IMG/VR virus record: IMGVR_UViG_3300033142_000789
Span: 1-20,883 of that record
Source: a virus
Reading direction: 5' to 3' (one strand)
Length of the DNA: 20,883 nt
Part shown: positions 1-19,341 of the stretch, in pieces
Numbering within the stretch: position 1 is the stretch's first letter
Layout of the letters: each line of letters starts with the position of its first letter
Position numbers and translations under genes: made by a program
The notes under the pieces: model-generated
What the model saw: the letters and a program-made list of their open reading frames with translations, nothing else
Database searches by the model: none
Told to the model about the DNA's origin: nothing

Positions 1-833
1 TTATAGATGAAACAAATGAAGACTTAGAGAAGTTATGTGAAGTGTTTGATGACCGTGGCATTACTGTATACAGACCAAACGAATCAATTAACTTTCAGTT
101 TACAGACGGGCAGTACTCATATTGTCCACGTGACAACTTGTTAGTTGTTGGTAATAGGGTTATTGAAGCACCTATGTCAGTCCGGTCCAGGCAGCACGAA
201 GTACAAAGTTATGCTGAAGTAAAACGTTGGGCGATACGCACAGGCATTGAATGGGTTGCAGCCCCAGCACCGAATTTAAATTATCAGGAAAATGTAATAG
301 CAGGTAGTTTCAGACTTACAAATGCTGAACCTATTTTCGATGCTGCAAACATAGCCAGATTTGGATTTGATATATTGTACCTTGTTAGTGATTCTGCAAA
401 TATGCGTGGTGCAGAATGGTTGCAAACTGTACTAGGAGATATGTTTACAGTACACACAACAGATATCTATGATGCAGCGCACATAGACAGCACCATTATA
501 CCAATTGATGAGAACTGGATAGTACTAAATGCTAATCGTGTCAATGATCATAATCTGCCAGAATTCCTCCAGGGCTACAACAAGATTTATATCACTGAGG
601 ATATGATCAATCCACAATCATTTACAGGATATCCGTATGCAAGTAAGTGGATCGCTATTAACATGCTCTCCATAGGTAACAAGACAATAATCTGCGATAA
701 GAATCAGCCACTGATACATGCAGAACTAAAGAAGAACGGGTTTGATGTAATACCACTAGAGCTACGTCACGCACGTACTCTAGGCGGTGGGTTTCATTGT
801 GTAACACTTGATTTGCTCCGGGAGGCTAAGTAA
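1..833 (+). CDS. Amidinotransferase (glycine/inosamine amidinotransferase family), 5'-truncated by window edge
   Basis: The frame is open to base 1, so the start lies upstream; a GTG at 42 is in frame but is probably internal. The protein matches the AGAT/StrB amidinotransferase fold. Early it shows CPRDN...VIEAPMSVRSRQHE, then FDAANIARFG, then HTTDIYDAAHIDST (the His-containing catalytic strand). Near the C-terminus it has LGGGFHCVTLDL, whose Cys is the expected nucleophile. Such enzymes transfer an amidino group from arginine to an amine, via an amidino-cysteine intermediate. Related arginine-modifying enzymes (deiminases, DDAH) share the fold but differ around the active site; the GGGFHC form favours an amidinotransferase. 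The acceptor substrate cannot be told from sequence. A late structural gene follows 34 nt downstream, so the gene may be expressed with virion genes. Family assignment is strong; the reaction is inferred. Confidence 0.85.
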   Translation, partial: IDETNEDLEKLCEVFDDRGITVYRPNESINFQFTDGQYSYCPRDNLLVVGNRVIEAPMSVRSRQHEVQSYAEVKRWAIRTGIEWVAAPAPNLNYQENVIAGSFRLTNAEPIFDAANIARFGFDILYLVSDSANMRGAEWLQTVLGDMFTVHTTDIYDAAHIDSTIIPIDENWIVLNANRVNDHNLPEFLQGYNKIYITEDMINPQSFTGYPYASKWIAINMLSIGNKTIICDKNQPLIHAELKKNGFDVIPLELRHARTLGGGFHCVTLDLLREAK

Positions 834-867: not shown

Positions 868-2112
868 ATGATCGACTCAAACGAAATTAATGCCATTGTA
901 GCAGCTAAAGTCACCGAAACAGTAGCAGAGCAAGTCGCAGACCTTTTTAAGAATGACAAAGCACTAGTAGCAAACCTTAGGAGCCAAGCAGTATCGTTAT
1001 TGGTACGCAACTTTGACCTTGATGACTTAGTTAAGAAAGGCATATCCAAGCAAATAGCAACAGAGGTAGCTGAACTTTTAGTTAGTCCAGACAGTAAACT
1101 ACTTGACTCAGAACTTATCAATTCAGCAGTTGCTAACAGCATTGCAGAAGCAACAAACTCACAAATAGGATCACTCATTGACAATGATCCAAAGCTTCTA
1201 GGTTCTCTTAAGTCGCAGGCAGTTACAACGCTAGTCAGCAGATTAAGCGAAACTAGTAATATTGACAGACTTATTTCTAATAAAATTGCAGAACGATTTG
1301 AAGCAGAGTTTGATGGCATTGGTATTCATAATAGCGCAACGAAACGCGAAATAACTATTATGGAAGATAATGTAGTTGTTGACAATACACTAACATCCAC
1401 GAACGTTTCTGTAACTGAAGACCTTTCAACTAATAATATATCCGTCCGCGGTAACTTATCAATTAACGGTAACGTAGATATTACCTCAGGTGCATGGGAC
1501 GCGCTATCTTCAAAAATTACACTTGCCGCAGCAGATGAAATTACACTTGCAGTCAAGAAAGATATGATTGAAGCAGTAATAGCTCAAACTGATAACTTGA
1601 ACTTTACGCAAATAAACATTAATGGTAAGCCAGCGATATCAGGCAACACATTAGGTGCTCAGATAACTGATTCAACATTAACTAAAATTGGTAAATTAAA
1701 AGTATTAACGGTTACCGGAACAGCCACAGTAGGTGTAATACATTCCGAAGATAAGCGAGTTGGTATTAACACCCGCACTCCAAATGCAGCACTTGATGTA
1801 TGGGATGAAGAAGTTGAAATACTAGTTGGCAAATTAAAAGAACAGACAGCGTTCGTTGGCACTAACAGACCACAGAACTTAGTACTTGGTGTTAACCGAA
1901 GTGAAGACTTAAAAATTGATACTGATGGTGTAGTAACAATCAAGAAACTTAAATTAGGTCACCGCACTATTAAACACGGCGACACACAGCCGGGATATTC
2001 AGGCGTGCCGGGCGACTTAGTATTGAATACAAAACTAACAGTAGAAAACCCAATCTTCGCATGGTATTGTTTGCACGAATATAGTTGGGTGGCACTTAAG
2101 GCCACAATGTGA
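868..2112 (+). CDS. Virion structural protein, fibre/baseplate type, with duplicated helical N-terminus
   Basis: The ATG at 868 is chosen over an upstream in-frame TTG (808) because GGAG sits 5 nt before it and a late promoter box ends at 842. The protein is 414 aa. Residues about 4-68 and 82-146 are a diverged helical duplication, each copy carrying a D(K/P)xLxxxLxSQAVxxLV core. Residues 150-260 are Thr/Asn/Val-rich, as in beta-strand fibre shafts (NTLTSTNVSVTEDLSTNNISVRGNLSI). Residues 287-345 carry RVGINTRTPNAALDVWDEE followed by GTNRPQNLVLGVN and KIDTDGVVTIKKL, a pattern I associate with tail-fibre and baseplate proteins of large phages. The end, with FAWYCLHEYSWVAL, resembles a fibre tip. 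It overlaps the next gene by 4 nt (GTGA). A virion role is well supported; exact position in the particle is not. Confidence 0.7.
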   Translation: MIDSNEINAIVAAKVTETVAEQVADLFKNDKALVANLRSQAVSLLVRNFDLDDLVKKGISKQIATEVAELLVSPDSKLLDSELINSAVANSIAEATNSQIGSLIDNDPKLLGSLKSQAVTTLVSRLSETSNIDRLISNKIAERFEAEFDGIGIHNSATKREITIMEDNVVVDNTLTSTNVSVTEDLSTNNISVRGNLSINGNVDITSGAWDALSSKITLAAADEITLAVKKDMIEAVIAQTDNLNFTQININGKPAISGNTLGAQITDSTLTKIGKLKVLTVTGTATVGVIHSEDKRVGINTRTPNAALDVWDEEVEILVGKLKEQTAFVGTNRPQNLVLGVNRSEDLKIDTDGVVTIKKLKLGHRTIKHGDTQPGYSGVPGDLVLNTKLTVENPIFAWYCLHEYSWVALKATM

Positions 2113-2648
2113 AAATATGCTGGGTAGTTAGTGAAGAGATTCCTTCCAAGCTATTAGATCCAGAAGTTCTTAAAGACACAGCGATATCCTGGGGCAGTTG
2201 GAAAATTTGGAAAGAATATAAACTAGACAATTGCATCTGTACAGATCCAGACGAAGCTCATAAACTAATCCAACGTGCCTTTCATGCAGTTTGCACCTTG
2301 TACATTATGCAAGAAAGTTATAAAGCAGTTGGTAGTCCAGGTGGAGTTAAATTATTCAATGGACACTTTAAGAATAATGGCGTTAGTAATAAAGATGACA
2401 TTGTTGCATTGAACCTTGCAGTTCCACAATCTGATGTTGTTCTACTGTCAGGATTCAATTTTAGTCCTATCTTAGAAGCAGACCCTAGTCGCGAAGAATA
2501 CTATTTTAATGTACGTGAGTTAATGAAAGCAAATGCTACGACGCAATTTGTATTAGTTGATTGTTCAGCTGAATTAGCAAGTTGGGTAGGTGAACTAGAC
2601 AACGTAACACAAGATACTATCGACAGTGTAAAGAAGTTGTTAGGCTAA
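2109..2648 (+). CDS. Uncharacterised phage protein
   Basis: A 179-aa protein that I do not recognise. It starts at a GTG overlapping the stop of the structural gene (GTGA), so it is probably translationally coupled and expressed late. It is mixed alpha/beta with no membrane segment. A central hydrophobic strand (DDIVALNLAVPQSDVVLLSGFNFSPIL) and a later one (TQFVLVDCSAELASWV) suggest a Rossmann-like or other three-layer fold, but there is no nucleotide-binding motif. Its last 32 nt are antisense to the end of the EAL gene. Position directly after a fibre-type gene suggests a virion assembly role, which is inference only. Confidence 0.6.
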   Translation: MKICWVVSEEIPSKLLDPEVLKDTAISWGSWKIWKEYKLDNCICTDPDEAHKLIQRAFHAVCTLYIMQESYKAVGSPGGVKLFNGHFKNNGVSNKDDIVALNLAVPQSDVVLLSGFNFSPILEADPSREEYYFNVRELMKANATTQFVLVDCSAELASWVGELDNVTQDTIDSVKKLLG

Positions 2649-3402
2649 TAGTTTCTTCAATTTCTTCTACAGTTTCCGGCTCACAAAAATAATAACCCTG
2701 AAAACAAGTAAATCCAATATCACGTAATATATTATATTGACAGTTGGTTTCCACTCCTTCGACAACGGTAAATTTATGCAATGCAGTTGTTAATTGAAAC
2801 ATGGCGGTAAGAAGTGCAACGTCTTGTTCAGAACTTACAACATCATCTACAAATGTTTTGTCTATTTTGATTTCATTAATGGGCAGCATTTTCAATCTAC
2901 CAAGTGAACTGTACCCAGTACCAAAGTCATCAATTGAAACATTAATACCAGACGCTGAAAGCCGATATATCTTTGCAATGTTTAAATCATTAATCATTGA
3001 TGTTTCGGTAAGTTCTAGAGTTAGCTGATGCGGATGGATTTCTGCGTCTAGCACTATCTCAATTACACGGGCACAAAAACGGCTGTCTTGCAGTTGCTCT
3101 GCAGATACGTTAACTGATAGTGAGAATGCATCAGTGACTAATTTTCGATCCATCCATGACCTTAATTGCTGGCAAGCATGCCGCATTATCCAATACCCTA
3201 GCTCGATCATCTGGTTAGTTTCGATTGCAACACTAAGAAGTTGGTCAATTTGACATACGCTAGTATCTGGTCTGAGTAGTGCCTCTGCTCCAGTCAATAC
3301 AAAGTGATCCAACTCTAGCAAAAACTGTGGTTGGTATTTTATAGTAAACGAATCGTTGCGAATGCCCGTCCTGATGTATTGCTCTATATCTCTGTTCATC
3401 AT
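2617..3402 (-). CDS. Stand-alone EAL-domain cyclic-di-GMP phosphodiesterase
   Basis: A 261-aa protein consisting almost entirely of an EAL domain, which hydrolyses c-di-GMP to pGpG. The key residues all appear present: GAEALLR (E40, the EAL Glu), SVNVS (N98), LELTET (E130), IDDFGTG (D158, D159, the metal and loop-6 region), IKIDKTF (K179, D181), VVEGVET (E215) and QGYYF (Q235). No GGDEF, PAS, signal peptide or membrane segment is seen, so it would act as a soluble, constitutively active enzyme. It is the only minus-strand gene here and runs into the end of its neighbour. ATAAATA ends 3 nt before the first of two tandem ATGs (3402, 3399) with no Shine-Dalgarno, suggesting late, leaderless expression. 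Predicted effect: lower host c-di-GMP, hence less biofilm and more motility. Domain and activity are strongly supported; the purpose is inferred. Confidence 0.93.
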   Translation of the reverse strand: MMNRDIEQYIRTGIRNDSFTIKYQPQFLLELDHFVLTGAEALLRPDTSVCQIDQLLSVAIETNQMIELGYWIMRHACQQLRSWMDRKLVTDAFSLSVNVSAEQLQDSRFCARVIEIVLDAEIHPHQLTLELTETSMINDLNIAKIYRLSASGINVSIDDFGTGYSSLGRLKMLPINEIKIDKTFVDDVVSSEQDVALLTAMFQLTTALHKFTVVEGVETNCQYNILRDIGFTCFQGYYFCEPETVEEIEETISLTTSLHCR

Positions 3403-3405
3403 CAG

Positions 3406-3412
3406 TATTTAT
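3406..3412 (-). promoter_or_regulatory. Possible T4-type late promoter box for the EAL gene (leaderless)
   Basis: The minus strand reads CATAAATACTG immediately before ATGATG. With T4 geometry, about 5 nt from the box to +1, transcription would begin at the start codons. No Shine-Dalgarno is present. Confidence 0.45.
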
Positions 3413-3422
3413 GGGAGGTTGC

Positions 3423-3440
3423 TAAGTCATTGATTTACAG
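3423..3440 (+). repeat. Intergenic repeat, copy A
   Basis: TAAGTCATTGATTTACAG, the most diverged of four copies of TAAGTCATTGATTTATATAG. It lies 36 bp before copy B, between the divergent EAL gene and the early promoter at 3493. Confidence 0.85.
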
Positions 3441-3458
3441 TGGTACACCTCTAATTTG

Positions 3459-3478
3459 TAAGTCATTGATTTATATAG
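3459..3478 (+). repeat. Intergenic repeat, copy B
   Basis: TAAGTCATTGATTTATATAG, identical to copy D (10769). It ends 14 bp before the palindrome of the early promoter at 3493, so it could be an activator or repressor site or a recombination-prone module boundary. Confidence 0.9.
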
Positions 3479-3492
3479 GCAACTAATTTGCC

Positions 3493-3527
3493 CAAAAGGT
3501 AGACCTTTTGAGTGCATTTGCTATAAT
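3493..3527 (+). promoter_or_regulatory. Early promoter with operator-like palindrome
   Basis: CAAAAGGT-AG-ACCTTTTG (3493-3510) is a perfect 8+8 palindrome. The -35 TAGACC (3500-3505) lies inside it. After a 16-nt spacer comes TATAAT (3522-3527) with an extended -10 TG at 3519-3520. The following ATTAGTA is shared with the promoters at 8398, 10388 and 10898. It drives the gene at 3559 and probably the gene run to 8390. Confidence 0.85.
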
Positions 3528-3558
3528 TAGTATAACAGTTAAGCACAGGAGCAACAAA

Positions 3559-3885
3559 ATGCCATACGTTATATACAACAAAGCAACTACAGAAATTTTA
3601 CTAGCCCGCGCACGTTCAGTAGGTTGTTATATCCGGAACTACAAAACCGAAGGCGCAGCAAAAGCAGCATTGACCCGCATGGATAAGAAAGGTAAGTTAG
3701 GCGGTCGGTATCAAGGTGCTGATTATGTTAAAGAAGACTTTGCAATTTGTGAAGCTGGTGAGTTCCAGGCTAACGTAGAAAAAACGCACATGGTCCGCAG
3801 CGCAATGAACGGTGTGATGGTTGAAGAATCCGTTAACACTCCATTTGGTTCTTCGGTAGCTTCTGAAAACTACTGGTGCAGCTAA
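3559..3885 (+). CDS. Uncharacterised early phage protein
   Basis: A 108-aa protein, first gene after the early promoter. The ATG at 3559 follows AGGAGC; an upstream in-frame TTG lies inside the promoter and was rejected. The N-terminus MPYVIYNKATTEIL is followed by SYNxKTEGAAKAALTRM-type helices (YKTEGAAKAALTRMDKKGKLGG). This arrangement of a short beta hairpin plus an Ala-rich helix recurs in small conserved proteins of T4-like phages with no known function. There is no membrane segment or catalytic motif. Being first behind a strong early promoter it is likely abundant early, so a host-takeover role is possible but unproven. Confidence 0.7.
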   Translation: MPYVIYNKATTEILLARARSVGCYIRNYKTEGAAKAALTRMDKKGKLGGRYQGADYVKEDFAICEAGEFQANVEKTHMVRSAMNGVMVEESVNTPFGSSVASENYWCS

Positions 3886-3886
3886 T

Positions 3887-4159
3887 ATGAAATCAAAGAA
3901 AAAATTGTTTGAAGCCCTTGACAAGCATTTCAAAACTAACCGCTGGTCAGCAAAGGGCCTGAAGCACAGCAACATTTCAGACGAAACATATGGTCGAAGA
4001 AGTATGATATATGTTAGTTTGAAAACGCCCGATGAGCGCGATGAAGTTGAACGTTTATTAAAGCGCGATGGCTTTGGGGTACAAAGTGGATATTGGCCAG
4101 ACGGTCCAGTAGCAGAAATACAAGTTTCATATTTTAAAGGTCATCACTGGGATGAATAA
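3887..4159 (+). CDS. Small uncharacterised protein
   Basis: A 90-aa protein, starting 1 nt after the previous stop (TAATATG), so probably translationally coupled. The N-terminus is strongly basic (MKSKKKLFEALDKHFKTNRW) and the C-terminus is aromatic and acidic (YFKGHHWDE). The middle (SMIYVSLKTPDERDEVERLLKRDGF) reads as beta-alpha, compatible with a small RNA- or protein-binding fold. I do not recognise a family. Confidence 0.6.
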   Translation: MKSKKKLFEALDKHFKTNRWSAKGLKHSNISDETYGRRSMIYVSLKTPDERDEVERLLKRDGFGVQSGYWPDGPVAEIQVSYFKGHHWDE

Positions 4160-4367
4160 GCGTAACTTCCACAAAGAAGGTTTTGAAACCGGCAAAGGCT
4201 GGAATGAGAACTACAGACCCGGCGGCCCGTATCGTTGTGGCGCTGTAGGCCCAGACCACAAGTATTATCAGATGTACAAGCAGGACCAAATAAATTCAAT
4301 GTTATGGTTCGACGGATTTGACAAAGGCTTAGAACAGCAAAAAGTTTTTCGGAGGTTACAAGCATGA
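4152..4367 (+). CDS. Possible ribosome modulation factor-like protein
   Basis: A 71-aa protein overlapping the previous gene by 8 nt and the next by 4 (ATGA). It has the spacing of small RMF-like proteins: an N-terminal FHKEGFETGKGW, a central PY (residues 26-27), and a C-terminal WFDGFDKGLE, comparable to the RGYQAG...CPY...WLGGWREA pattern of E. coli RMF. RMF drives 70S ribosomes into hibernating 100S dimers. A phage version could protect or silence ribosomes during infection. The match is by pattern only, with a longer central loop and different flanking residues, so it could be an unrelated short basic/aromatic protein. Confidence 0.4.
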   Translation: MNKRNFHKEGFETGKGWNENYRPGGPYRCGAVGPDHKYYQMYKQDQINSMLWFDGFDKGLEQQKVFRRLQA

Positions 4368-4690
4368 TTGATTACACTCCTTTTATAATTGGCGCGCTAT
4401 TTGGATTTGGTGCTGGCTTTATGATTGCACATTATATACACCGCTTGCCTAAACTGACTGCCGCACGTAAAGCGGCAAAGACTCGCAAGCTGAATAAGAT
4501 TAAAGATAATGTCGTAAATCGCGTAGCAAACAAAAATCTTAATCATACAATTGGATCGGCTGTATTATATTACATGGATCTTTCCCCAGAGCTGTTTGTT
4601 GGGATAACAACTAAAGATCTCGAGCAGCTTGCGGCAGAAATAGGTGAAGAAGAACGCAATCGCAACAAAGGAAATCACAATGCCAGCTAA
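4364..4690 (+). CDS. Small inner-membrane protein with basic cytoplasmic tail
   Basis: A 108-aa protein behind a good GGAGG site (about 4351). Residues 5-25 (FIIGALFGFGAGFMIAHYI) form one transmembrane segment. It is followed by a Lys/Arg/Ala-rich stretch (PKLTAARKAAKTRKLNKIK) that by the positive-inside rule would lie in the cytoplasm, placing the short N-terminus outside. The C-terminal half is helical and more acidic. It overlaps the genes on both sides (4 nt and 11 nt). No family recognised; small phage membrane proteins of this kind often act in host takeover or superinfection exclusion, but nothing here shows that. Confidence 0.6.
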   Translation: MIDYTPFIIGALFGFGAGFMIAHYIHRLPKLTAARKAAKTRKLNKIKDNVVNRVANKNLNHTIGSAVLYYMDLSPELFVGITTKDLEQLAAEIGEEERNRNKGNHNAS

Positions 4691-4871
4691 ATCAGAATTA
4701 TATGTAGCACATATCGATACCGGCGTTATGTTCACCGGCACTAAAGAAGAGTGCCAGGCGCACCGCGACGCACTACAGTTCAACACAGATTGTTGGCGCG
4801 TAAGTTCTTTAGAAGCATATGGCGCAGCATGTTACGCAGATGGGTACGACGAAGGTCAGAGACATTGCTAG
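4680..4871 (+). CDS. Small uncharacterised protein
   Basis: A 63-aa protein. The ATG at 4680 follows AAAGGAAA inside the end of the previous gene, and the 11-nt overlap suggests coupling; an in-frame upstream ATG (4644) would overlap far more and lacks a ribosome site. The sequence has a small beta-hairpin-like start (ELYVAHIDTGVMFTGTKEEC) and ends in AYGAACYADGYDEGQRHC, with three cysteines. The closing YADGYDEG recalls the C-terminal GxxxG helix of the RMF-like neighbour. No function assigned. Confidence 0.5.
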   Translation: MPAKSELYVAHIDTGVMFTGTKEECQAHRDALQFNTDCWRVSSLEAYGAACYADGYDEGQRHC

Positions 4872-5019
4872 AGGCAAAATCAATCGCGTAGGTGATCATT
4901 GGTCGCCAAGTTATTGCAATGAGGCAGCGGATGTAATTGAACAACTCCGTGCCGACAATCTGAAATTGGAAGAAGAGATCCAATGTATGTGCGACGACGC
5001 AGCCGGAGAAGATATTTAA
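4819..5019 (+). CDS. Small uncharacterised protein with C-terminal coiled coil
   Basis: Up to 66 aa; the start is uncertain. The ATG at 4819 overlaps the previous gene by 53 nt without a clear ribosome site, and an ATG at 4840 is an alternative. The conserved-looking part starts around VRDIARGKINRVGDHWSP and continues into a helix (EAADVIEQLRADNLKLEEEI) with a heptad pattern typical of a short coiled coil. The stop overlaps the next start (TAATG). Small proteins with this EAADxIExLRxxN helix are common in phages and have no established function. Confidence 0.5.
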   Translation: MAQHVTQMGTTKVRDIARGKINRVGDHWSPSYCNEAADVIEQLRADNLKLEEEIQCMCDDAAGEDI

Positions 5020-5147
5020 TGAAAAAGAAATGGCCAATATTTTTACCAGACATTGAAAATTACACAGCTAAGGATTGGCTAGGGTGGTTTAGTCTTGTTG
5101 TGATAATCGGCGCAATTATGTTTGGCATACTAGGATTGTTAACATGA
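5019..5147 (+). CDS. 42-aa single-pass membrane protein
   Basis: A short gene between 4819-5019 and the HNH gene, joined to both by overlaps: TAATG at its start and ATGA at its end. The product begins MKKKWPIFLPDIENYTAKDW and continues into a hydrophobic stretch at about residues 21-42 (FSLVVIIGAIMFGILGLL), one clear transmembrane helix. The basic start and the double overlap argue that it is real despite its size. A regulatory or host-membrane role is possible; nothing specific is visible. Confidence 0.6.
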   Translation: MKKKWPIFLPDIENYTAKDWLGWFSLVVIIGAIMFGILGLLT

Positions 5148-5611
5148 ATAAGGAATGGTCGCCGGGCTTCGTGCAAAAAAAGGTGAAGGTGATGTATCAT
5201 CTTCAGAACGGCTTGTGTGGCTTGTGTGGCACTCCTAATATGTTCTTAAGAGCCGAAGTATCCGCAAGTTACTACAAAAGCTTCAAGCACTTCGCTGCAA
5301 CATTTGATCATATTCTTGCTAAGTCGCATGGTGGTACACTGGCTTACTCAAATGGTGTTTGTGCATGTAACAGGTGCAACACGATAAAAGGTGATTTATC
5401 AATTGAAGAGTTTTTTGAGCAGTACGATGTATTGTTTAAGCGACTGATCGAAAGGCCGCAGCGTATAGCAGCAAGACGATTGGCAATGGTGAAGAAAAAC
5501 GGATATATTATTGCTTGGTTAGCAGCACAGCTTGGTGAAACAGTGGAAGACTTGTTCCTGAAACATGTGTATACTCAGGATGAGATACTTGAAATGGAGA
5601 AAGCAGCATGA
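5144..5611 (+). CDS. HNH endonuclease
   Basis: A 155-aa HNH-family nuclease with a zinc-ribbon-type frame: CGLC (C25, C28) and CNRC (C75, C78) flank the core. FDHILAKSHGGTLAYSN holds the DH pair (D55, H56) and the central N70. NTIKGD (N79) closes the beta-beta-alpha metal motif. Such enzymes cut DNA and in phages occur as homing endonucleases, host-DNA degraders or packaging-associated nucleases. This one is freestanding inside a run of small coupled genes, not next to a terminase or inside an intron, so a mobile homing role or host-DNA attack is more likely. The C-terminal 60 residues are helical and may bind DNA. It overlaps both neighbours by 4 nt. Confidence 0.88.
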   Translation: MNKEWSPGFVQKKVKVMYHLQNGLCGLCGTPNMFLRAEVSASYYKSFKHFAATFDHILAKSHGGTLAYSNGVCACNRCNTIKGDLSIEEFFEQYDVLFKRLIERPQRIAARRLAMVKKNGYIIAWLAAQLGETVEDLFLKHVYTQDEILEMEKAA

Positions 5612-5808
5612 TTGAAGCACTATTTATATTCACCGCGGTAATGGTTATTACGGCAACGATTAAGTACATGGGTTTGATACTTGGTAACGACATGACACTG
5701 CCATATCTCATTCCGGGCGTTTGCTCCCCGGGGCACTTTTTAATTTGGTATCCATCAGCAATGTTCCAGGTTTGGTTTTGGACAGATAAATTAGGAGTAT
5801 TTGTATAA
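5608..5808 (+). CDS. Small membrane protein
   Basis: A 66-aa hydrophobic protein starting in an ATGA overlap with the HNH gene. Residues 4-27 (ALFIFTAVMVITATIKYMGLILG) form a transmembrane helix. A second hydrophobic, Trp- and Pro-rich stretch (PGHFLIWYPSAMFQVWFWTDKLGVFV) runs to the C-terminus. It ends in TAATG with the next membrane gene, so the two probably act together. No family recognised. Confidence 0.6.
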   Translation: MIEALFIFTAVMVITATIKYMGLILGNDMTLPYLIPGVCSPGHFLIWYPSAMFQVWFWTDKLGVFV

Positions 5809-6239
5809 TGTGGAAAACTATATCAAAACACCCAGTATATCTCTTTACGAGATACGTAGTAATCAACAGTATCTTTGCAGCCGCTTTGTATTACGGCTTT
5901 ATAGTTGAAGAACCAATTGAAGGTGCAAAGAATATTGCCGTGTTCATGGGTTGGGTCACTGTCGCTATTAGTCTTTTGTTTATGTTTGCCTTAATGATAG
6001 ATGGCGCTGAGTCAAATGATAAGAAAGGCGAGATGAAAGAAAAGTTGGCCAGGGAGATGCCAAAGTCGGTTATACCATTCCCAATCGACGTACTATATGA
6101 TCTGTGCGTGACAGGAGTGTTTATCTGGTTCGGACATTATGTATTGGCATTCTTTTATATAATATCAATATTCGTAGGAAAAGAACTACGCGACATACCA
6201 AAGAATTTAGTACTTAAAAATCTTCAGAAGAAGGAATAG
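5808..6239 (+). CDS. Polytopic membrane protein
   Basis: A 143-aa protein coupled to the previous gene by a 1-nt overlap. Hydrophobic segments lie at about residues 17-34 (VINSIFAAALYYGFIV), 44-66 (NIAVFMGWVTVAISLLFMFALM) and 98-127 (LYDLCVTGVFIWFGHYVLAFFYIISIF), giving three or four membrane passes. A charged loop (ESNDKKGEMKEKLAREM) lies between the second and third. With the genes at 4364, 5019 and 5608 it forms a cluster of phage membrane proteins. It could be a holin-like or exclusion protein, but there is no adjacent lysin and it lies behind an early promoter, which argues against a holin. Confidence 0.6.
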   Translation: MWKTISKHPVYLFTRYVVINSIFAAALYYGFIVEEPIEGAKNIAVFMGWVTVAISLLFMFALMIDGAESNDKKGEMKEKLAREMPKSVIPFPIDVLYDLCVTGVFIWFGHYVLAFFYIISIFVGKELRDIPKNLVLKNLQKKE

Positions 6240-6242
6240 CAA

Positions 6243-6437
6243 ATGTCAGATGTGTTAACAAAAGGTGAAGCGTTCCTAAATCGCAAGTCATCACTTGAAG
6301 CAACCATTGACGATGAATGGCGCAACCCTATAGAAAGGGTTGATGCTTGTTTAGAGTTAGCACAGTTACTTGAGAAAGATTTGTATCAACGCGCTAAGTT
6401 TGTACAGCTGGCGCGCGACTTCCTAAGGAGTTTATAG
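6243..6437 (+). CDS. Small helical protein
   Basis: A 64-aa protein with a GAAGGA ribosome site, starting 3 nt after the previous stop. It is almost entirely helical (GEAFLNRKSSLEATIDDEW, then RVDACLELAQLLEKDLYQRAKFVQLARDFLRSL) and acidic at the start. It resembles the short helical-hairpin proteins common in early regions of T4-like phages. No motif or family recognised. Confidence 0.55.
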   Translation: MSDVLTKGEAFLNRKSSLEATIDDEWRNPIERVDACLELAQLLEKDLYQRAKFVQLARDFLRSL

Positions 6438-6439
6438 AA

Positions 6440-6646
6440 ATGGCACTTGTTGATGTTACAAACGATTTAACAGACGAACAGAAACTTGTGTTAAGCAACA
6501 AGTTAGAAGCCATTATGGCAAAGTACACAAAGATGGCTAGAGGCGATGACTTTGCCAAAGATTATTTTACAGGCGTAGCTGATGGACTTAACCATGCTTT
6601 TAAATTAACAAATGAAATTGATGATGATTATAATAGTAAGGATTAA
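6440..6646 (+). CDS. Small uncharacterised protein
   Basis: A 68-aa protein with AAGGAG upstream, separated from the previous gene by 2 nt and overlapping the next start (TAATG). It is helical and acidic (LTDEQKLVLSNKLEAIMAKYTKMARGDDFAKDYFTGVADGLNHAF), with a GVADGLNHA motif in the last helix and a Asp-rich tail. I see no known domain. Its tight linkage to the HD hydrolase gene suggests co-expression, not necessarily shared function. Confidence 0.55.
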   Translation: MALVDVTNDLTDEQKLVLSNKLEAIMAKYTKMARGDDFAKDYFTGVADGLNHAFKLTNEIDDDYNSKD

Positions 6647-7101
6647 TGATGAGCACTAAGATAAAGTACGCAGGACTTGACAAGGCAATCCGCATTATGG
6701 CGGTAGCGTTTGACGGAAAGTTCGACAAGGGTGGAACTCCTTATGCCCTCCACTGCCTTCATGTTATGCGCGCCGTTGCACATCTAGGCACGGAAGCGAT
6801 GATCGCTGCGGTACTTCATGACTTAATTGAGGACACGGATTGGACAGCGGAGATGCTTTTAGCCGAGGGCTTTGACCCTCGTACAGTTAGCATAATCGTA
6901 TTGCTCAGCCATGCTGATAACGAACCATACATGGATTACATTATGCGGATTTCAGTATCTCTAATTGCTCGCGCAATTAAGATGGCTGACTTGCGACACA
7001 ACAGCGACATTCACAGGATGAAGGGCTTACGTCCAAAGGACCACGAGCGCATCGAGAAGTACCACAAGGCCTACGCCTTCTTAAAAGAGGTTAAGGACTA
7101 A
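6646..7101 (+). CDS. HD-domain (p)ppGpp hydrolase, SpoT/MESH1-like small alarmone hydrolase
   Basis: A 151-aa single-domain HD hydrolase. The RelA/SpoT-type signature is complete: KFDKGGTPYALHCLHV (H36), AAVLHDLIEDTDW (H58, D59, and E62, D63 of the EDT motif) and IKMADLRHNSD (D115, followed by RHN). This pattern marks the manganese-dependent 3'-pyrophosphohydrolase domain that removes pyrophosphate from (p)ppGpp, as in SpoT and the stand-alone MESH1 enzymes. No synthetase, TGS or ACT domain is present, so it would be hydrolase-only. Other small HD enzymes also carry HD but lack the KMADLRHN pattern. In a phage it could keep host alarmone low and sustain transcription and translation. ATG at 6646 or 6649 are both possible. 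Family confident; in vivo role inferred. Confidence 0.85.
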   Translation: MMSTKIKYAGLDKAIRIMAVAFDGKFDKGGTPYALHCLHVMRAVAHLGTEAMIAAVLHDLIEDTDWTAEMLLAEGFDPRTVSIIVLLSHADNEPYMDYIMRISVSLIARAIKMADLRHNSDIHRMKGLRPKDHERIEKYHKAYAFLKEVKD

Positions 7102-9391: not shown

Positions 9392-9976
9392 ATGACAACA
9401 TTGGTACCAGTAGTAATAGAAAAGACCCCAAACGGTGAACGCAGTTACGACATTTACAGTCGGTTGCTTAAAGAACGAATCATTATGCTAAACGGCGTAG
9501 TAGATGAGAATAGCTGTAACAGCATTATCGCTCAAATGTTATATTTGGAAAGCGACAACCCAGATTCAGAAATCCTATTTTACATCAACAGCCCAGGCGG
9601 TTCAGTAACTGACGGCATGGCTGTAATTGATACCATGAACTTCATCAAATGTGATATACGAACTATTGTTGCTGGCCAGGCTTGCAGCATGGGGTCATTG
9701 TTAGCAGCAAGCGGTACCAAAGGTAAGCGCATGATGTTGAAGCACGGTACACACATGATACACCAAGTCCTAGCTGGTTACAAAGGTCAGGCGTCCGATT
9801 TGGAAATTCACACTAACGAAACATTGCGCTGGAAGAAAGCATTAAACGATGTGTATGTTACTGTCACCGGTAAGCCGTACACAACAATCGAAAAAGATAC
9901 AGACCGCGATAATTTTATGACCTCAGAAGAATCTGTAGCATATGGTTTAGCTGACGAGGTTATCCTTAAGAGATAA
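9392..9976 (+). CDS. clpP: ClpP-like ATP-dependent protease proteolytic subunit
   Basis: A 194-aa ClpP serine peptidase of normal length. It has the substrate-groove motif NSPGGSVTDGMA (67-76) and a complete triad: S99 in GQACSMGSLLAASG, H124 in GTHMIHQ, and D173 in DRDNFMTS. The usual GGS loop and handle-helix region (QASDLEIHTNETL) are present. ClpP forms a 14-mer barrel that degrades proteins delivered by Clp ATPases; no Clp ATPase is seen here, so it would use the host's ClpX or ClpA, or act alone. Phage ClpP can also serve in capsid maturation, but the lack of nearby head genes and the early-type promoter favour a role in altering host or phage protein turnover. GAGG lies 7 nt before the ATG. 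Confidence 0.93.
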   Translation: MTTLVPVVIEKTPNGERSYDIYSRLLKERIIMLNGVVDENSCNSIIAQMLYLESDNPDSEILFYINSPGGSVTDGMAVIDTMNFIKCDIRTIVAGQACSMGSLLAASGTKGKRMMLKHGTHMIHQVLAGYKGQASDLEIHTNETLRWKKALNDVYVTVTGKPYTTIEKDTDRDNFMTSEESVAYGLADEVILKR

Positions 9977-10703: not shown

Positions 10704-10712
10704 GCGGTTTGC

Positions 10713-10732
10713 TAAGTCATTGATCTATATAG
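10713..10732 (+). repeat. Intergenic repeat, copy C
   Basis: TAAGTCATTGATCTATATAG, one mismatch from copies B and D, 56 bp before copy D. Confidence 0.9.
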
Positions 10733-10768
10733 AGTTATAGGCTCCCAGTTATGTATCACTAAAACTGC

Positions 10769-10788
10769 TAAGTCATTGATTTATATAG
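10769..10788 (+). repeat. Intergenic repeat, copy D
   Basis: TAAGTCATTGATTTATATAG, identical to copy B over 20 bp although more than 7 kb away. Confidence 0.92.
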
Positions 10789-12502: not shown

Positions 12503-12799
12503 ATGAGCGAAATAAAAATCCGTCCCTTACACGATCGCGTAGTCTTACGCCAATTAGAAGCTGAAACCACATCCGCCGGTGGTATTGTAATACCGGGCGC
12601 CGCAGCAGAAAAACCTGCTGAAGGTATTGTTCTAGCAATAGGCAAGGGCAAGACATTAAACTCCGGTGAAATCGTACCAATGGATGTTCAAATAGGCGAT
12701 AAAGTAATGTTTGGCAAATACGTTGGACAGGAAATTACCGTCGACGGCGAAGATCTATTAGTTTTAAACGAAGAAGAGATTATAGCAATTTTAGTTTAA
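12503..12799 (+). CDS. groES: GroES (Cpn10) co-chaperonin
   Basis: A 98-aa full-length Cpn10: IRPLHDRVVLRQLEAE, mobile loop at about residues 18-31 (TTSAGGIVIPG), then EGIVLAIGKGKTLNSGEIVPMDVQIGDKVMFGKYVGQEITVDGEDLLVL compressed into the usual barrel, ending EEIIAIL. The heptamer caps host GroEL and releases the folded substrate. It keeps the bacterial-type sequence, unlike the gp31-like second co-chaperonin at 19772. Location just before the virion genes suggests it helps fold them. AGGA precedes the ATG. Recent acquisition from a bacterium is plausible, but base use cannot be tested here. Confidence 0.95.
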   Translation: MSEIKIRPLHDRVVLRQLEAETTSAGGIVIPGAAAEKPAEGIVLAIGKGKTLNSGEIVPMDVQIGDKVMFGKYVGQEITVDGEDLLVLNEEEIIAILV

Positions 12800-13395: not shown

Positions 13396-15804
13396 ATGGC
13401 ATTGGCTCCGGTATGGATTACCGACGCCGGTAGTTTAGGCGTGGTACCAGAAGGGAAGTTTTACAGGATTGCATTAGAAGCAGAAGATCCTGATTTCCCC
13501 GGTGACCCATCCAAAGTAACCTATTCACTAATAGCTGGCGCATTGCCAGCTGGAGTGCAAGTAAACACAAACGGCGTCGTTGAAGGCATTCCTGTTTCAG
13601 TAGCAGACTTTAAAGGCGTACCATCCGAGGTATCCGAAGACACAACCTCAAAATTCGCAATACGTGTTATTGATGAGGAGGACCGTGTTTCCGACAGAAC
13701 GTTTACTCTCACAATATCAGGACAAGATAAACCAAAGTGGGATACACCGGCTGGCCTAGTAGGTAAATGGTTCGACGGTGGTGAGGTTAGTTTCCAATTC
13801 GAAGCGTCAGATTCAGATCCAAGCGACACTATTGAAATTTCGTTAGTGTCTGGCATACTTCCACTGGGATTAACTCTTACGTCAGACGGTCTTTTGAGCG
13901 GCTTCGCTCAACCGCTTATTGGTATAGGTGGTGCAGTAGCAGGCTGGGATAGAGACGGCACAACGTTCGATGAGTTCCCGTTAGATTTTAGTACAGTATC
14001 TATTGATCAGAACTATCAATTTGTATTACAAGTGACAGATGGTAAGGACGTTGTCTTAAGAACATTTGAAGTGTTTATATACAGTCGTAATAGCATGACA
14101 GCTGACAATGTTGAATTCACAGCTGATAACACTAACGTCACAGCAGATAGCATCGCAATTCGATCACCATACATTACAAACAACGTAGATGACTTAGGTA
14201 CTGTCAGGCACGATAATTATTATGCACATCAGTTCATTGGAATAGATCCAAACGGCGATCAGATTCAATACGAGATTGCATGGGGACCGGATACTGCGAG
14301 CACTACAGATATTACAGCTGATGACGGTAACTTAACAGCAGATCACGGTATATTACCTGCAGGGCTAACATTAGATCCTGTAACAGGTTGGTTGTCTGGT
14401 CACCTGCCACACGTAGGTTTAACTGAAGTAGAATATACATTTGGCATCAAAACATTTAAAACAATAGATCCATCGATTAAATCATTGTTGTACTTAACCT
14501 CGCTAACGTTAATTGGTGATATTGAAACTAGTGTCTTCTGGTTAACAGATACCCTAGTAGGCACAATTGATAATGGTGCTATTAGCACACTATATGTCGA
14601 AGCATCATATCCTGGAACAGTAATAAAGTACAGATTAAAGACCGGCCTTAAAAATAAGTTGCCACAGGGGTTATCATTGTTACCTAGTGGTAACATCGTT
14701 GGCCAGGTTAGCTTTAAGACGTTTAGCTTTGATGGTGGCACTACAACATTCGACGAAGAATATGCAACTAGACTTGATGCTAACCCAACTACATTTGACT
14801 TAACATACAACTTTACAGTTGAAGCATATAGTACAAATGGCATCGTATCAGTTACTAAAGAATTTACAATTTTAGTTAATAGAGAATTCGATAGCCCACA
14901 GAATATATTATATTGTAAGGCTATGCCACCGCTTGCTGATAGAGATTTACTTAATACATTGCTATTGAACGGTAATGTCATTGCACAAGATAATGTGTAC
15001 AGAGCTGACGACCCAAACTTTGGATCAGCTAACCGAGTTATATACCAGCACGCCTTTGGCCTAACACCTGCAACACTTGAAGACTATTTTGCGGCACTTG
15101 AATTTAATCACTACAACAAGAACTTGATACTTGGTGAAGTTAAAACTGCAAGAGCATTAGATGATAATGACGATGTCATATACGAAGTTGTGTATAGTCA
15201 AATTGTAGATAACTTGGTTAATAGCGATGGTGAAAGTATACCACCTTCTGTTTCTATTAAGTATCCAGCAATAGATGATGGCGTGCCTGTTACGACTGTT
15301 TATCCGAACAGCTTACAAAATATGCGTGAAGAAGTAGTTGATCAAATAGGTCAACTGTCGAAGTTATTGCCTCGCTGGATGCTATCAAAACAAATAGATG
15401 GATCGGTACTAGGATTTACACCTGCCTGGGTTATTGCATACACTCAACCCGGGAAATCAAAACAAATGCAATACAGCATTACTGAGTTCTTTGGTACTCA
15501 ACTTAATTTAATTAACTTTGAGATTGATCGATATACGCTTGATGCAACACTATCACAATATTGGGGTATCACAGCAGACTCGGAGAATATCACAGTTGAT
15601 AGTGATATGTTAGTATCCGATTCTAATATATGGAAACGTGGTATTGTGACATCGTTTGATAGGAATGACGGTATCGACCTTGAGACGATATTTGACGGAG
15701 GCGCATGCCGATTTACATCGCCAGTTGATGTCTATAGTAGCTCAGACGCAAACGATCAATATGTTAAGTTTCCGCAGAAAATGATAATAAACAACGAACA
15801 GTAA
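13396..15804 (+). CDS. Large virion protein with repeated Ig-like/cadherin-like domains
   Basis: An 802-aa protein, the largest here. Four copies of the putative-Ig (He_PIG-like) core LPxGLxLxxxGxxxG occur at about residues 50-66, 151-171, 319-338 and 415-440 (for example GALPAGVQVNTNGVVEGIP). TADN-type strand repeats (SMTADNVEFTADNTNVTADS, about 234-253; DITADDGNLTADHG; and GITADSENITVDSD near 724) stand between them. The C-terminal 300 residues are a separate conserved-looking region (LLNTLLLNGNVIAQDNVYRA and onward). Such repeats build elongated surface or baseplate proteins that touch host carbohydrate or neighbouring proteins. The ATG lacks a good ribosome site and lies 5 nt after the previous stop, so it is probably coupled. 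Virion assignment confident; exact location not. Confidence 0.8.
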   Translation: MALAPVWITDAGSLGVVPEGKFYRIALEAEDPDFPGDPSKVTYSLIAGALPAGVQVNTNGVVEGIPVSVADFKGVPSEVSEDTTSKFAIRVIDEEDRVSDRTFTLTISGQDKPKWDTPAGLVGKWFDGGEVSFQFEASDSDPSDTIEISLVSGILPLGLTLTSDGLLSGFAQPLIGIGGAVAGWDRDGTTFDEFPLDFSTVSIDQNYQFVLQVTDGKDVVLRTFEVFIYSRNSMTADNVEFTADNTNVTADSIAIRSPYITNNVDDLGTVRHDNYYAHQFIGIDPNGDQIQYEIAWGPDTASTTDITADDGNLTADHGILPAGLTLDPVTGWLSGHLPHVGLTEVEYTFGIKTFKTIDPSIKSLLYLTSLTLIGDIETSVFWLTDTLVGTIDNGAISTLYVEASYPGTVIKYRLKTGLKNKLPQGLSLLPSGNIVGQVSFKTFSFDGGTTTFDEEYATRLDANPTTFDLTYNFTVEAYSTNGIVSVTKEFTILVNREFDSPQNILYCKAMPPLADRDLLNTLLLNGNVIAQDNVYRADDPNFGSANRVIYQHAFGLTPATLEDYFAALEFNHYNKNLILGEVKTARALDDNDDVIYEVVYSQIVDNLVNSDGESIPPSVSIKYPAIDDGVPVTTVYPNSLQNMREEVVDQIGQLSKLLPRWMLSKQIDGSVLGFTPAWVIAYTQPGKSKQMQYSITEFFGTQLNLINFEIDRYTLDATLSQYWGITADSENITVDSDMLVSDSNIWKRGIVTSFDRNDGIDLETIFDGGACRFTSPVDVYSSSDANDQYVKFPQKMIINNEQ

Positions 15805-16606: not shown

Positions 16607-16972
16607 ATGCGCGAAATAACACAAGACGATTGGGATGAAATGACAAAGCTAAGGGAACCTACCGTTAGTGAACTTGTCTTTTTGGCATCTATGGCTGGGC
16701 AATCTGTGTACGAACTAGATTGCCGGGTATACAAACAACACACCGTAGTTCAGTGGGATCCACTCAACAAACTCGATCAGAATCTAACCCTATTAGGCGC
16801 AGTAATATCAAAAGGCGATTGCAAGTTGTTCTATGATGACGGCGTAAATGAATTCTTCATTTACCAATATATATCCGGCCCAGAAACCGAACCCCCAATT
16901 GCACACAGAACAAATTTAAACGAAGCTGTTATTGAAGCAGCTATGAACTTATGGATTCCTGAGGAGGAATAA
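16607..16972 (+). CDS. Uncharacterised protein
   Basis: A 121-aa protein. ATG 16607 has no leader if the promoter at 16573 is used; ATG 16640, preceded by GGGATGA, is the alternative start. The sequence is alpha/beta: a helix (TVSELVFLASMAGQSVYELD), then strands (LLGAVISKGDCKLFYDDGVN and onward), and a C-terminal helix with EAVIEAAMNLW. It looks like a small regulatory or adaptor fold. No family recognised. It overlaps the MazG-like gene by 1 nt and carries that gene's GGAGG site in its last codons. Confidence 0.6.
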   Translation: MREITQDDWDEMTKLREPTVSELVFLASMAGQSVYELDCRVYKQHTVVQWDPLNKLDQNLTLLGAVISKGDCKLFYDDGVNEFFIYQYISGPETEPPIAHRTNLNEAVIEAAMNLWIPEEE

Positions 16973-17382
16973 TGGCAGATTTAAACGATTACGAAATGTT
17001 CGTACAAGGTAAACTATCAAAGCAAAGCAGAGACTTTGATACAATGATTGAGAGCCTGGTCGCTCTTAAAGAAGATGGCGACGGTATCGGAGTGCAAATT
17101 CCAGAGTTACTCACAGCGGCAGTTGGCCTTACTGCCGAAGCAGGCGAGTTTGATGAGATTGTTAAGAAAATGATCTTTCAGGGCAAGCCACTTGATCTAG
17201 CCAACAAGATTCATCTACAAAAAGAGCTTGGCGATTTAATGTTTTATGTGATGGTTGCATGTCTGGCGTTAGGTGTCACAGCAGACGAAATAATTAAAAT
17301 GAACCGCGACAAACTGGAAGGTCGTTATAAAGAAGGCTTTACAGTTGAGGAGTCTGAAAATCGCGCCGAGGCTGATATCTAA
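16972..17382 (+). CDS. mazG: MazG-like NTP pyrophosphohydrolase
   Basis: A 136-aa all-alpha NTP pyrophosphatase: GLTAEAGEFDEIVKK (E56..E59) and KELGDLMFYV (E85..D88) form the EExxE-type magnesium site of MazG and dUTPase-like enzymes, followed by the conserved NRDKLEGRY (N111, K114, R118). It hydrolyses NTPs or dNTPs to monophosphate and pyrophosphate. In phages it has been proposed to clean modified nucleotides, alter the nucleotide pool or touch (p)ppGpp metabolism. Single-domain length fits phage MazG-like enzymes. With the HD hydrolase at 6646 it may help reset the host starvation state, an inference. GGAGG precedes the ATG. Confidence 0.88.
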   Translation: MADLNDYEMFVQGKLSKQSRDFDTMIESLVALKEDGDGIGVQIPELLTAAVGLTAEAGEFDEIVKKMIFQGKPLDLANKIHLQKELGDLMFYVMVACLALGVTADEIIKMNRDKLEGRYKEGFTVEESENRAEADI

Positions 17383-18124: not shown

Positions 18125-18817
18125 ATGGCTAGAATGAAGAACCAATATGATTTTATGGCAGGCATACACTTCGGTGGCGAATTGTATTTTAACAAGTACT
18201 CGATGATTATAGATTTTTATTCAGATGGCGAATCAATGCAAGATCAGAATACCGGCATTGATCGCTTAGGGTATTTTGTATATGAAATAGTACAGCGTAG
18301 CGTCTTTGTACAAGAAGATGATCTCCTTGCTATTAAAGGCTACGTAAAAGCAGGTATTCCTGTGTTAACGGTTGCAGGTCCGGGTCCTTTTGATCCAATA
18401 ATTCTTGCCACGCTAGTTACGAAGATGAATGCTATACTCGAAGATACACTTGTAATATCGGATGCAGAAATTACAAGCGCAGTTGGCGGCTTGATGACAT
18501 ACGTTTGGGATTCAACAGACGACGATGACGAAGTGCATGAAATAGTAGCCGACGATGATGAAGTAAACTGGTGGGCATCACCTGCTCCACGTTTCTTATC
18601 ATATCCAGTGGGCAGCGACGTAGATGAAATTGAAGCTATTAAACCTTTTCCGTTAACGTGGGAAGCCTTAGGATTTCCGTGGATGGACGAAGATGCAGAT
18701 AAAGATACAGACGAGAATGAATTTATGTTAGATCCATCTTTAAAGAAAACCAAAAAAGGAACTGGTGGAAAAGTTATTAAAGCAGACTTTACTAGCAAAA
18801 CTAAAAACCCTAAGTAA
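18125..18817 (+). CDS. Uncharacterised phage protein with acidic middle and basic tail
   Basis: A 230-aa protein preceded by AGAGGA. The N-terminal part (GELYFNKYSMIIDFYSDGES and onward) is alpha/beta. The middle has a very acidic run around residue 140 (STDDDDEVHEIVADDDEV), then a Trp/Pro-rich region (PFPLTWEALGFPWMDEDAD), and the end is basic (LKKTKKGTGGKVIKADFTSK). No membrane segment or catalytic motif. The gene joins the next by a TAATG overlap and lies among structural-type and chaperonin genes, so a morphogenesis role is possible but unproven. Confidence 0.6.
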   Translation: MARMKNQYDFMAGIHFGGELYFNKYSMIIDFYSDGESMQDQNTGIDRLGYFVYEIVQRSVFVQEDDLLAIKGYVKAGIPVLTVAGPGPFDPIILATLVTKMNAILEDTLVISDAEITSAVGGLMTYVWDSTDDDDEVHEIVADDDEVNWWASPAPRFLSYPVGSDVDEIEAIKPFPLTWEALGFPWMDEDADKDTDENEFMLDPSLKKTKKGTGGKVIKADFTSKTKNPK

Positions 18818-19341
18818 TGAAAACAGATAAATTTGGACAAATGATTTATGATCAGGACGAAGTGTTTGATATACTCATGCACGATATTAATCCTGACCCT
18901 AATTATCACCCTGGACCGTTTATGATAGAGGACGGACAAACAATAGATGTCAGCCTAGCAAATAGGGCTGCCGGGTACGAAGCATTAGTCACACACCTAG
19001 AAGATGATTTATCTATAGAAGATTTTGATAAGCAAAACCAGGAACTGTGGTACATGCCTGATAGCTACAAAGAGATGGACATTGCCGCGCATATATTAAG
19101 TTTATGCAAAACAGATGCAGAGTTACAACGATGTGGTGAAGAATTAATATTGTACATGGAACGTGATTTGTTTGATCTCTTACGTTATATGGTTTACTTA
19201 GTAGATACAATGGAATTGAATAATGTAGTCTGGGGAGTTGGGCGAGGGTCTAGCGTATCCAGTTATATATTGTACAAATTAAAAGTACATAGGATTGATA
19301 GTATATTTTATAAACTTGATCCTAGAGAATTCCTGCGCTAA
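18817..19341 (+). CDS. Small protein with a DNA polymerase III alpha-like palm motif
   Basis: A 174-aa protein whose last 65 residues match the family C (DnaE) polymerase segment: ERDLFDLLRYMVYLVDTMEL, then VVWGVGRGSSVSSYILYKLK (GRGSS 142-146) and RIDSIFYKLDPREFL. In DnaE this reads roughly [34 protein letters not shown], and is followed by the catalytic PDIDxDF. Here the protein stops just before that point, so the catalytic aspartates are missing. It is not a polymerase on its own. The first 100 residues are unrelated and acidic. It could be a DnaE-derived binding module or a decoy of the host replicase. The motif is clear by eye, but similar short matches can occur by convergence. Confidence 0.65.
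   Translation: MKTDKFGQMIYDQDEVFDILMHDINPDPNYHPGPFMIEDGQTIDVSLANRAAGYEALVTHLEDDLSIEDFDKQNQELWYMPDSYKEMDIAAHILSLCKTDAELQRCGEELILYMERDLFDLLRYMVYLVDTMELNNVVWGVGRGSSVSSYILYKLKVHRIDSIFYKLDPREFLR

What the first reader, a model, noticed from the sequence alone, without database searches (positions are those of the whole stretch)
2617..7101. One phage region encodes enzymes to destroy two host second messengers
The EAL protein (2617-3402) keeps all key c-di-GMP phosphodiesterase residues, and the HD protein (6646-7101) keeps the SpoT/MESH1 hydrolase motifs. Neither has a synthetase or sensor domain, so both should only lower the messenger. Together they could push the host from the surface-attached and starvation states toward active growth. 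I know of few phages carrying both.
Basis: partly seen in the sequence, partly recalled or inferred. Interest (0 to 1): 0.85.

Follow-up and report, generated by a model that had tools for sequence, protein, structure and literature searches.

The report
Jumbo-phage enzymes that cut signalling nucleotides
A very large bacterial virus carries one enzyme predicted to destroy the bacterial signal c-di-GMP and another predicted to strip stress-type pyrophosphates, most likely from (p)ppApp or blocked tRNAs, and its near-complete relatives also carry enzymes that make c-di-GMP, so this virus family probably steers that signal rather than simply erasing it.

Summary
ORF 2617-3402 (-) is a standalone EAL domain (Pfam E 3e-56) with all catalytic residues kept; ORF 6646-7101 (+) is a standalone HD alarmone hydrolase with its metal and catalytic residues kept. 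The window is a fragment of a jumbo phage distantly related to Pseudomonas phages PA5oct and Paride. Both genes keep their place, under purifying selection, in three relatives (two of 293 and 344 kb).

Two corrections. First, the HD protein is not SpoT/MESH1-like: by sequence and fold its best match is Aph1, a (p)ppApp hydrolase (TM 0.87/0.93; MESH1 0.73/0.63). It is 43% identical to the only such gene in phage PVP-SE1, whose SAH is reported to rescue E. coli from a (p)ppApp-making toxin. Counter-defence against toxic alarmone synthetases is likelier than removing (p)ppGpp. Second, 'both only lower' fails for the lineage: near-complete relatives also encode PAS-GGDEF diguanylate cyclases with intact motifs, so c-di-GMP can be made as well as degraded.

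Phage alarmone hydrolases and phage GGDEFs are known separately; a conserved phage EAL + GGDEF + Aph-type set was not found in the literature held. No activity was measured; host and timing are unknown.

The parts
2617..3402 (-). Standalone EAL-domain protein, 261 aa, predicted c-di-GMP phosphodiesterase; start more likely at the second ATG (3399)
   Evidence: Pfam EAL 3.4e-56; catalytic residues invariant in 4 phage copies; fold match to MorA/BifA/MucR; syntenic orthologues
6646..7101 (+). Standalone HD-fold small alarmone hydrolase, 151 aa, Aph1 type (predicted (p)ppApp 3'-pyrophosphohydrolase)
   Evidence: Best PDB relative 7smg by sequence and fold; active-site residues kept in 10 phage homologues; syntenic orthologues
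2617..2648 (.). Convergent 3' overlap of the EAL gene with gene 2109-2648 (+); the same arrangement in G003, G004 and G006
3420..3478 (+). Two copies of a 23-nt repeat (TGCTAAGTCATTGATTTATATAG type) between the divergent EAL and + strand genes; possible regulatory element
   Evidence: motif recurs 13 times in G004 and 7 in G006, 0 in one shuffle of each
3498..3532 (+). Promoter-like element (TAGACC, 16 nt, extended -10 TGCTATAAT) ahead of the + strand gene run that includes the HD gene; one of four similar copies in the window
   Evidence: total promoter-like hits in the scan do not exceed shuffles, the recurrence of the longer motif does
16972..17382 (+). MazG-like nucleotide pyrophosphohydrolase; possible further nucleotide enzyme, not required by the explanation
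   Evidence: Pfam MazG 6.4e-7, PHROG 229 1.4e-41

Best explanation
The window is a fragment of a jumbo phage from a lineage related to PA5oct/Paride that carries a set of enzymes acting on bacterial signalling nucleotides. The EAL protein is a soluble phosphodiesterase without a sensor domain that linearises c-di-GMP to pGpG. The HD protein is an Aph1-type 3'-pyrophosphohydrolase that most likely removes (p)ppApp, or the pyrophosphate put on tRNA 3' ends, made by toxic alarmone synthetases (toxSAS) used in defence and competition; lowering (p)ppGpp may be a side activity. The lineage steers c-di-GMP rather than only erasing it, because near-complete relatives also encode PAS-GGDEF diguanylate cyclases, so synthesis and breakdown can be separated in time or place during infection. 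Shown: gene presence, catalytic residues, folds, synteny, purifying selection, GGDEF genes in relatives. Inferred: activity, substrate preference, timing, benefit to the phage, and a GGDEF gene in the window phage itself.
For: EAL. HD: 7smg first by sequence, 3.9e-26 against 8e-7 for RelA and 1.4e-3 for MESH1, and by fold; D27 and L116 invariant in ten phage homologues and in PVP-SE1 gp220, which is 43% identical and the only such gene in that phage. [quoted passage not shown] SSU5 SAH removes the tRNA modification made by FaRel2 (PMC11559606). GGDEF: G004 and G006 orthologues with RYGGDEF and I-site RKTD at a syntenic site flanked by phage genes; G017 has three GGDEF and an EAL next to a PAS-GGDEF; G018 and G022 have EAL, GGDEF and a SAH. 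No RelA/SpoT synthetase in the five records searched.
Against: Nothing was measured. The window phage is known over only about 45 kb, so its own GGDEF is unproven. Substrate choice of HD rests on family resemblance; several SAHs (MESH1, P. aeruginosa SAH, XccSAH) act on both (p)ppApp and (p)ppGpp. The original Aph1 paper could not be read, so its specificity signature was not tested as published. That the PVP-SE1 SAH tested was gp220 is inferred. EAL and HD lie on opposite strands and may be functionally unrelated.
Confidence: 0.6

Rival explanations
1. One reading: the phage only lowers both messengers, c-di-GMP and (p)ppGpp, to move the host from surface-attached and starved states to active growth.
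For: EAL residues intact; HD fold is that of alarmone hydrolases; no GGDEF or synthetase in the 45 kb known of the window phage.
Against: GGDEF cyclases in near-complete relatives; HD is Aph1-like rather than MESH1-like; the related phage Paride depends on (p)ppGpp signalling in dormant hosts (PMC10761892).
Confidence: 0.17
2. Pure counter-defence: both enzymes remove immune nucleotides. HD clears toxSAS products; EAL clears a cyclic dinucleotide such as 3'3'-c-di-GMP made by a CBASS/STING-type system rather than by lifestyle signalling.
For: Jumbo-phage phosphodiesterases have been read as counter-nucleotide defence (PMC7824862); in G006 the PAS-GGDEF gene overlaps an Acb1 anti-CBASS gene (Pfam 7.5e-36).
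Against: The same lineage makes c-di-GMP itself, which would feed a c-di-GMP-sensing defence; Acb1 was found only in G006; PADLOC has no match for EAL, HD or GGDEF, though it covers defence rather than counter-defence genes.
Confidence: 0.12
3. The EAL protein is not an enzyme in the cell but a c-di-GMP receptor or protein partner, as FimX or CsrD are, and the linkage with HD is incidental.
For: EAL proteins with such roles exist (FimX and CsrD, established knowledge); the ExLxR Arg is Lys in the G004 copy.
Against: All other metal ligands and the catalytic glutamates are invariant across four copies down to 59% identity, unlike degenerate receptors; the closest matches include active phosphodiesterases.
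Confidence: 0.08

Closest known systems
Aph1 (adenosine 3'-pyrophosphohydrolase, PDB 7smg) and phage SAHs such as PVP-SE1 gp220
   Same: Fold (TM 0.87/0.93), size, active-site residues, Asp27 and Leu116; 40% and 43% identity to the window HD protein
   Different: The solved Aph1 is from Bacteroides caccae, and aph1 genes are described beside a MuF (p)ppApp synthetase toxin as immunity genes (PMC12226406); here there is no synthetase nearby and the gene stands in a lytic-type jumbo phage
Standalone EAL c-di-GMP phosphodiesterases (MorA, BifA, MucR and DosP EAL domains)
   Same: Whole EAL domain, catalytic residues and fold
   Different: No sensor, GGDEF or membrane part; about 35% identity at best to bacterial EALs; encoded by a phage and conserved in that phage lineage
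Phage-borne GGDEF cyclases (Bacillus phage G gp350; Bordetella LK3 and Yuavirus)
   Same: A phage gene for making c-di-GMP (PMC8471281)
   Different: No EAL match turned up in the Bacillus phage G records; here relatives of the window phage carry EAL and GGDEF as separate genes
Pseudomonas phage Adele (SAH, MazG and Dap1; PMC12846349)
   Same: A phage predicted to touch both alarmones and c-di-GMP
   Different: Adele's Dap1 is reported to inhibit the host phosphodiesterase DipA, which would raise c-di-GMP; it does not encode an EAL enzyme in that account
Arenbergviridae (PA5oct, Paride)
   Same: Relatives' terminase 53% identical; ClpP, MazG, pol III fragment and GroES-like genes shared
   Different: No EAL, GGDEF or Aph-type HD found in Paride

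Membership tests
EAL c-di-GMP phosphodiesterase | Full-length EAL domain above the curated Pfam cut-off | tested here: met
   190.7 bits against a cut-off of 31.3, positions 4-236 of 236
EAL c-di-GMP phosphodiesterase | Metal-binding and catalytic residues (E, N, ELTE, DD, K, EGVE, Q) | tested here: met
   Invariant in four phage copies; aligned with MorA and DosP. The ExLxR Arg is Lys in G004 only
EAL c-di-GMP phosphodiesterase | Hydrolysis of c-di-GMP to pGpG | not testable with these tools
   Needs purified protein
Aph1-type (p)ppApp hydrolase | Closer in sequence and fold to Aph1 than to MESH1 or long RSH hydrolases | tested here: met
Aph1-type (p)ppApp hydrolase | Published (p)ppApp specificity signature (Ahmad et al. 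2023) | not tested
   Paper not held. A substitute, Asp27 and Leu116 where the Rel and SpoT sequences printed have Arg, is met
Aph1-type (p)ppApp hydrolase | Hydrolysis of (p)ppApp in preference to (p)ppGpp | not testable with these tools
   Needs enzyme assays
MESH1/SpoT-type (p)ppGpp hydrolase | HD metal site (H, HD, ED, D, N) | tested here: met
   H36, H58-D59, E62-D63, D115, N119; shared by all these hydrolases, so not diagnostic
MESH1/SpoT-type (p)ppGpp hydrolase | MESH1 or SpoT as nearest relative, with Arg at positions 27 and 116 | tested here: not met
   MESH1 1.4e-3 against 7smg 3.9e-26; Asp and Leu at those positions
GGDEF diguanylate cyclase (in relatives, not in the window) | GGDEF domain with intact GG[DE]EF motif and I-site RxxD | tested here: met
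   G004 and G006; no GGDEF found in the window or in G001
Arenbergviridae | Core-gene relationship (TerL and shared gene block) | tested here: inconclusive
   TerL of the syntenic relative G004 is 53% identical to Paride; six window genes match Paride at 34-50%; no phylogeny was built and the window holds no TerL

The most novel reading that the evidence does not exclude
A jumbo-phage lineage runs its own two-way c-di-GMP circuit (PAS-GGDEF synthases that may sense a cue, and separate EAL hydrolases), alongside an Aph1-type hydrolase that disarms toxic alarmone synthetases, so that host lifestyle signalling is put on a phage-timed programme.
Probability: 0.35. Interest if true: 0.8.

Novelty: new variant of a known kind. 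Interest (0 to 1): 0.62.

Why it matters
Phages are known to degrade immune nucleotides, and a few carry a single c-di-GMP or alarmone enzyme. A conserved phage set that can both make and break c-di-GMP would mean that a virus regulates, rather than merely blocks, the host's surface-attachment signal. It makes two questions directly testable: when in infection c-di-GMP rises or falls, and whether phage alarmone hydrolases exist to defeat toxSAS defence rather than to end the stringent response.

Tried and rejected
Host contamination of the GGDEF genes: rejected for G004 and G006, where the cyclase lies at the same place next to phage genes 84% and 63% identical.
MESH1-like HD: rejected by sequence and fold ranking.
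A synthetase partner for HD (toxin-antitoxin pair): no RelA/SpoT synthetase in G000, G001, G003, G004 or G006.
A PilZ c-di-GMP receptor of the phage: none. HD-GYP phosphodiesterases: none.
GGDEF-Acb1 operon as a general rule: Acb1 only in G006.
Reference phage records with EAL: many are unannotated, look host-contaminated, or are a transposon Urf2-type gene, so they were not used as precedents.
Nearest bacterial EALs (26-37% identity, mixed phyla) give no host.
HD relatives outside the lineage lie in stretches that match no other window gene: HD is widespread in phages, this EAL clade is not.
PADLOC: no match for EAL, HD or GGDEF.
Full report
What was checked. Both ORFs exist as described. ORF 2617-3402 (-) is one EAL domain and nothing else (Pfam 3.4e-56). 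Its closest solved relatives are the EAL domains of P. aeruginosa MorA and E. coli DosP. Aligned with three diverged phage orthologues it keeps every metal ligand and the catalytic glutamates, and its model superposes on EAL phosphodiesterases. ORF 6646-7101 (+) is one HD-fold hydrolase.

Where it lies. The window is a 20.9-kb virus record with no DNA-level match among 50,697 phage records. IMG/VR holds a 45-kb contig 99.7% identical over 19.2 kb (G001), a diverged 78-kb contig (G003), and two large relatives: G004 (293 kb; its ends lie in a short tandem repeat, so completeness is uncertain) and G006 (344 kb, with a 127-base direct terminal repeat, so probably complete). Most of the window is syntenic with them. 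EAL orthologues are 74, 61 and 59% identical (G003, G004, G006) and HD orthologues 77, 70 and 61%; EAL dN/dS is about 0.1-0.2, like the neighbouring genes, with dS near saturation. The G004 terminase is 53% identical to those of Pseudomonas phages Paride and PA5oct. Paride shares the ClpP, MazG, pol III fragment and GroES-like genes but shows no match to EAL, the Aph-type HD or GGDEF.

What the HD protein is. By sequence its best solved relative is 7smg, a (p)ppApp hydrolase (3.9e-26), far ahead of RelA (8e-7) and MESH1 (1.4e-3). By fold the ranking is the same: TM 0.87/0.93 and 40% identity for 7smg, about 0.73/0.63 for MESH1. In the printed alignments Mtb Rel and SpoT have Arg where this protein and Aph1 have Asp (27) and Leu (116). 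Both residues are invariant in ten phage homologues and present in PVP-SE1 gp220, the only such gene in that phage. The SAHs of phages PVP-SE1 and SSU5 are reported to rescue E. coli from the (p)ppApp synthetase FaRel (Jimmy et al. 2020, as described in PMC7644958), and the SSU5 SAH to remove the tRNA modification made by FaRel2 (PMC11559606). That the PVP-SE1 SAH tested was gp220 is inferred. The SSU5 enzyme is of a more distant type, which a further relative of the window phage, G018, appears to carry. Counter-defence against toxic alarmone synthetases is therefore the leading role, with (p)ppGpp as a possible extra substrate.

Does the phage only lower c-di-GMP? Not in the lineage. G004 and G006 each encode an orthologous PAS-GGDEF protein (52% identical) with intact RYGGDEF and I-site RxxD, at a syntenic place next to phage genes. 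G006 has a second PAS-GGDEF, shared with G017, a 250-kb contig that is syntenic with G006 but ends at the homologue of window gene 13396-15804, short of the EAL/HD block. G017 has three GGDEF proteins, one a GGDEF-EAL with an apparent membrane part, and a separate EAL directly upstream of a PAS-GGDEF on the same strand. More distant relatives G018 (TerL 54% to G006) and G022 also carry EAL, GGDEF and a SAH. No RelA/SpoT synthetase was found in the five records searched, no PilZ protein and no HD-GYP. Whether the window phage itself has a GGDEF is unknown, because only about 45 kb of its genome is represented.

Arrangement. The EAL gene is on the strand opposite to its neighbours and diverges from the + strand gene run that includes HD. 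The region between them holds two copies of a 23-nt repeat and an extended -10 promoter-like element, both recurring elsewhere. The two enzymes are thus probably under different control; expression timing is inference only.

What is known. Iyer et al. 2021 (PMC7824862) describe HD alarmone phosphodiesterases and HD-GYP enzymes in jumbo phages and read them as counter-nucleotide defence; a search of that text finds EAL and GGDEF once each, in cited titles. Phage GGDEFs are known in Bacillus phage G and Bordetella LK3/Yuavirus (PMC8471281), and PHROGs holds families of phage proteins that match GGDEF and EAL. Phage Adele carries a SAH, a MazG and the DipA inhibitor Dap1 (PMC12846349). The combination of EAL, separate PAS-GGDEF and Aph1-type hydrolase in one phage lineage was not found in the held literature; absence there is weak evidence.

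Verdict. Observation confirmed; interpretation partly supported; new variant of a known kind. No activity has been measured, the host is unknown, and co-occurrence among these related phages reflects shared descent, so it is not a statistical test of joint function.

Noticed in passing
G006 (IMGVR 3300032254_000001) 33940-34458 (-) and 34449-35417 (-): The PAS-GGDEF gene overlaps a downstream anti-CBASS Acb1 gene (Pfam 7.5e-36), so a c-di-GMP synthase and a cyclic-oligonucleotide nuclease share an apparent operon. Acb1 was not found in the other relatives.
   Followed up: partly
G017 (IMGVR 3300033143_001962) 150920-152630 (-) and 171342-173333 (-): A standalone EAL directly upstream of a PAS-GGDEF on the same strand, plus a 663-aa GGDEF-EAL with an apparent membrane region: several c-di-GMP enzymes in one phage contig.
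   Followed up: partly
window 3498, 8402, 10392, 10896 (+): Four copies of GGTWGACCTTTTG-N8-TGCTAYAATTAGTA, a candidate phage promoter family, none in a shuffled window.
   Followed up: partly
window 3420-3478 and 10710-10788; 13 sites in G004 and 7 in G006: A 23-nt repeat (TGCTAAGTCATTGATTTATATAG), often in pairs about 56 nt apart, of unknown role; none in shuffles.
   Followed up: partly
window 12503-12799 and 19772-20191 (+): Two different GroES-like co-chaperonins in one phage region.
   Followed up: no
window 18817-19341 (+): A 174-aa protein resembling a piece of DNA polymerase III alpha (Pfam 5.5e-5, just under its cut-off; PHROG 11127 6e-39), also in Paride.
   Followed up: no
window 9392-9976 (+): A full-length ClpP-type protease (Pfam 2.9e-71; above the NCBIfam PRK00277 cut-off), conserved in the lineage.
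   Followed up: no
window 3-833 (+): A 276-aa protein with no Pfam match whose GGGFHCVTLDL end recalls amidinotransferases by eye; only a PHROG of unknown function matches.
   Followed up: no
L234 (G018, IMGVR 3300045972_000138, about 181470-181697 +): A different alarmone hydrolase, resembling the Salmonella phage SSU5 SAH, in a jumbo phage related by its terminase; it suggests repeated acquisition of such hydrolases.
   Followed up: partly
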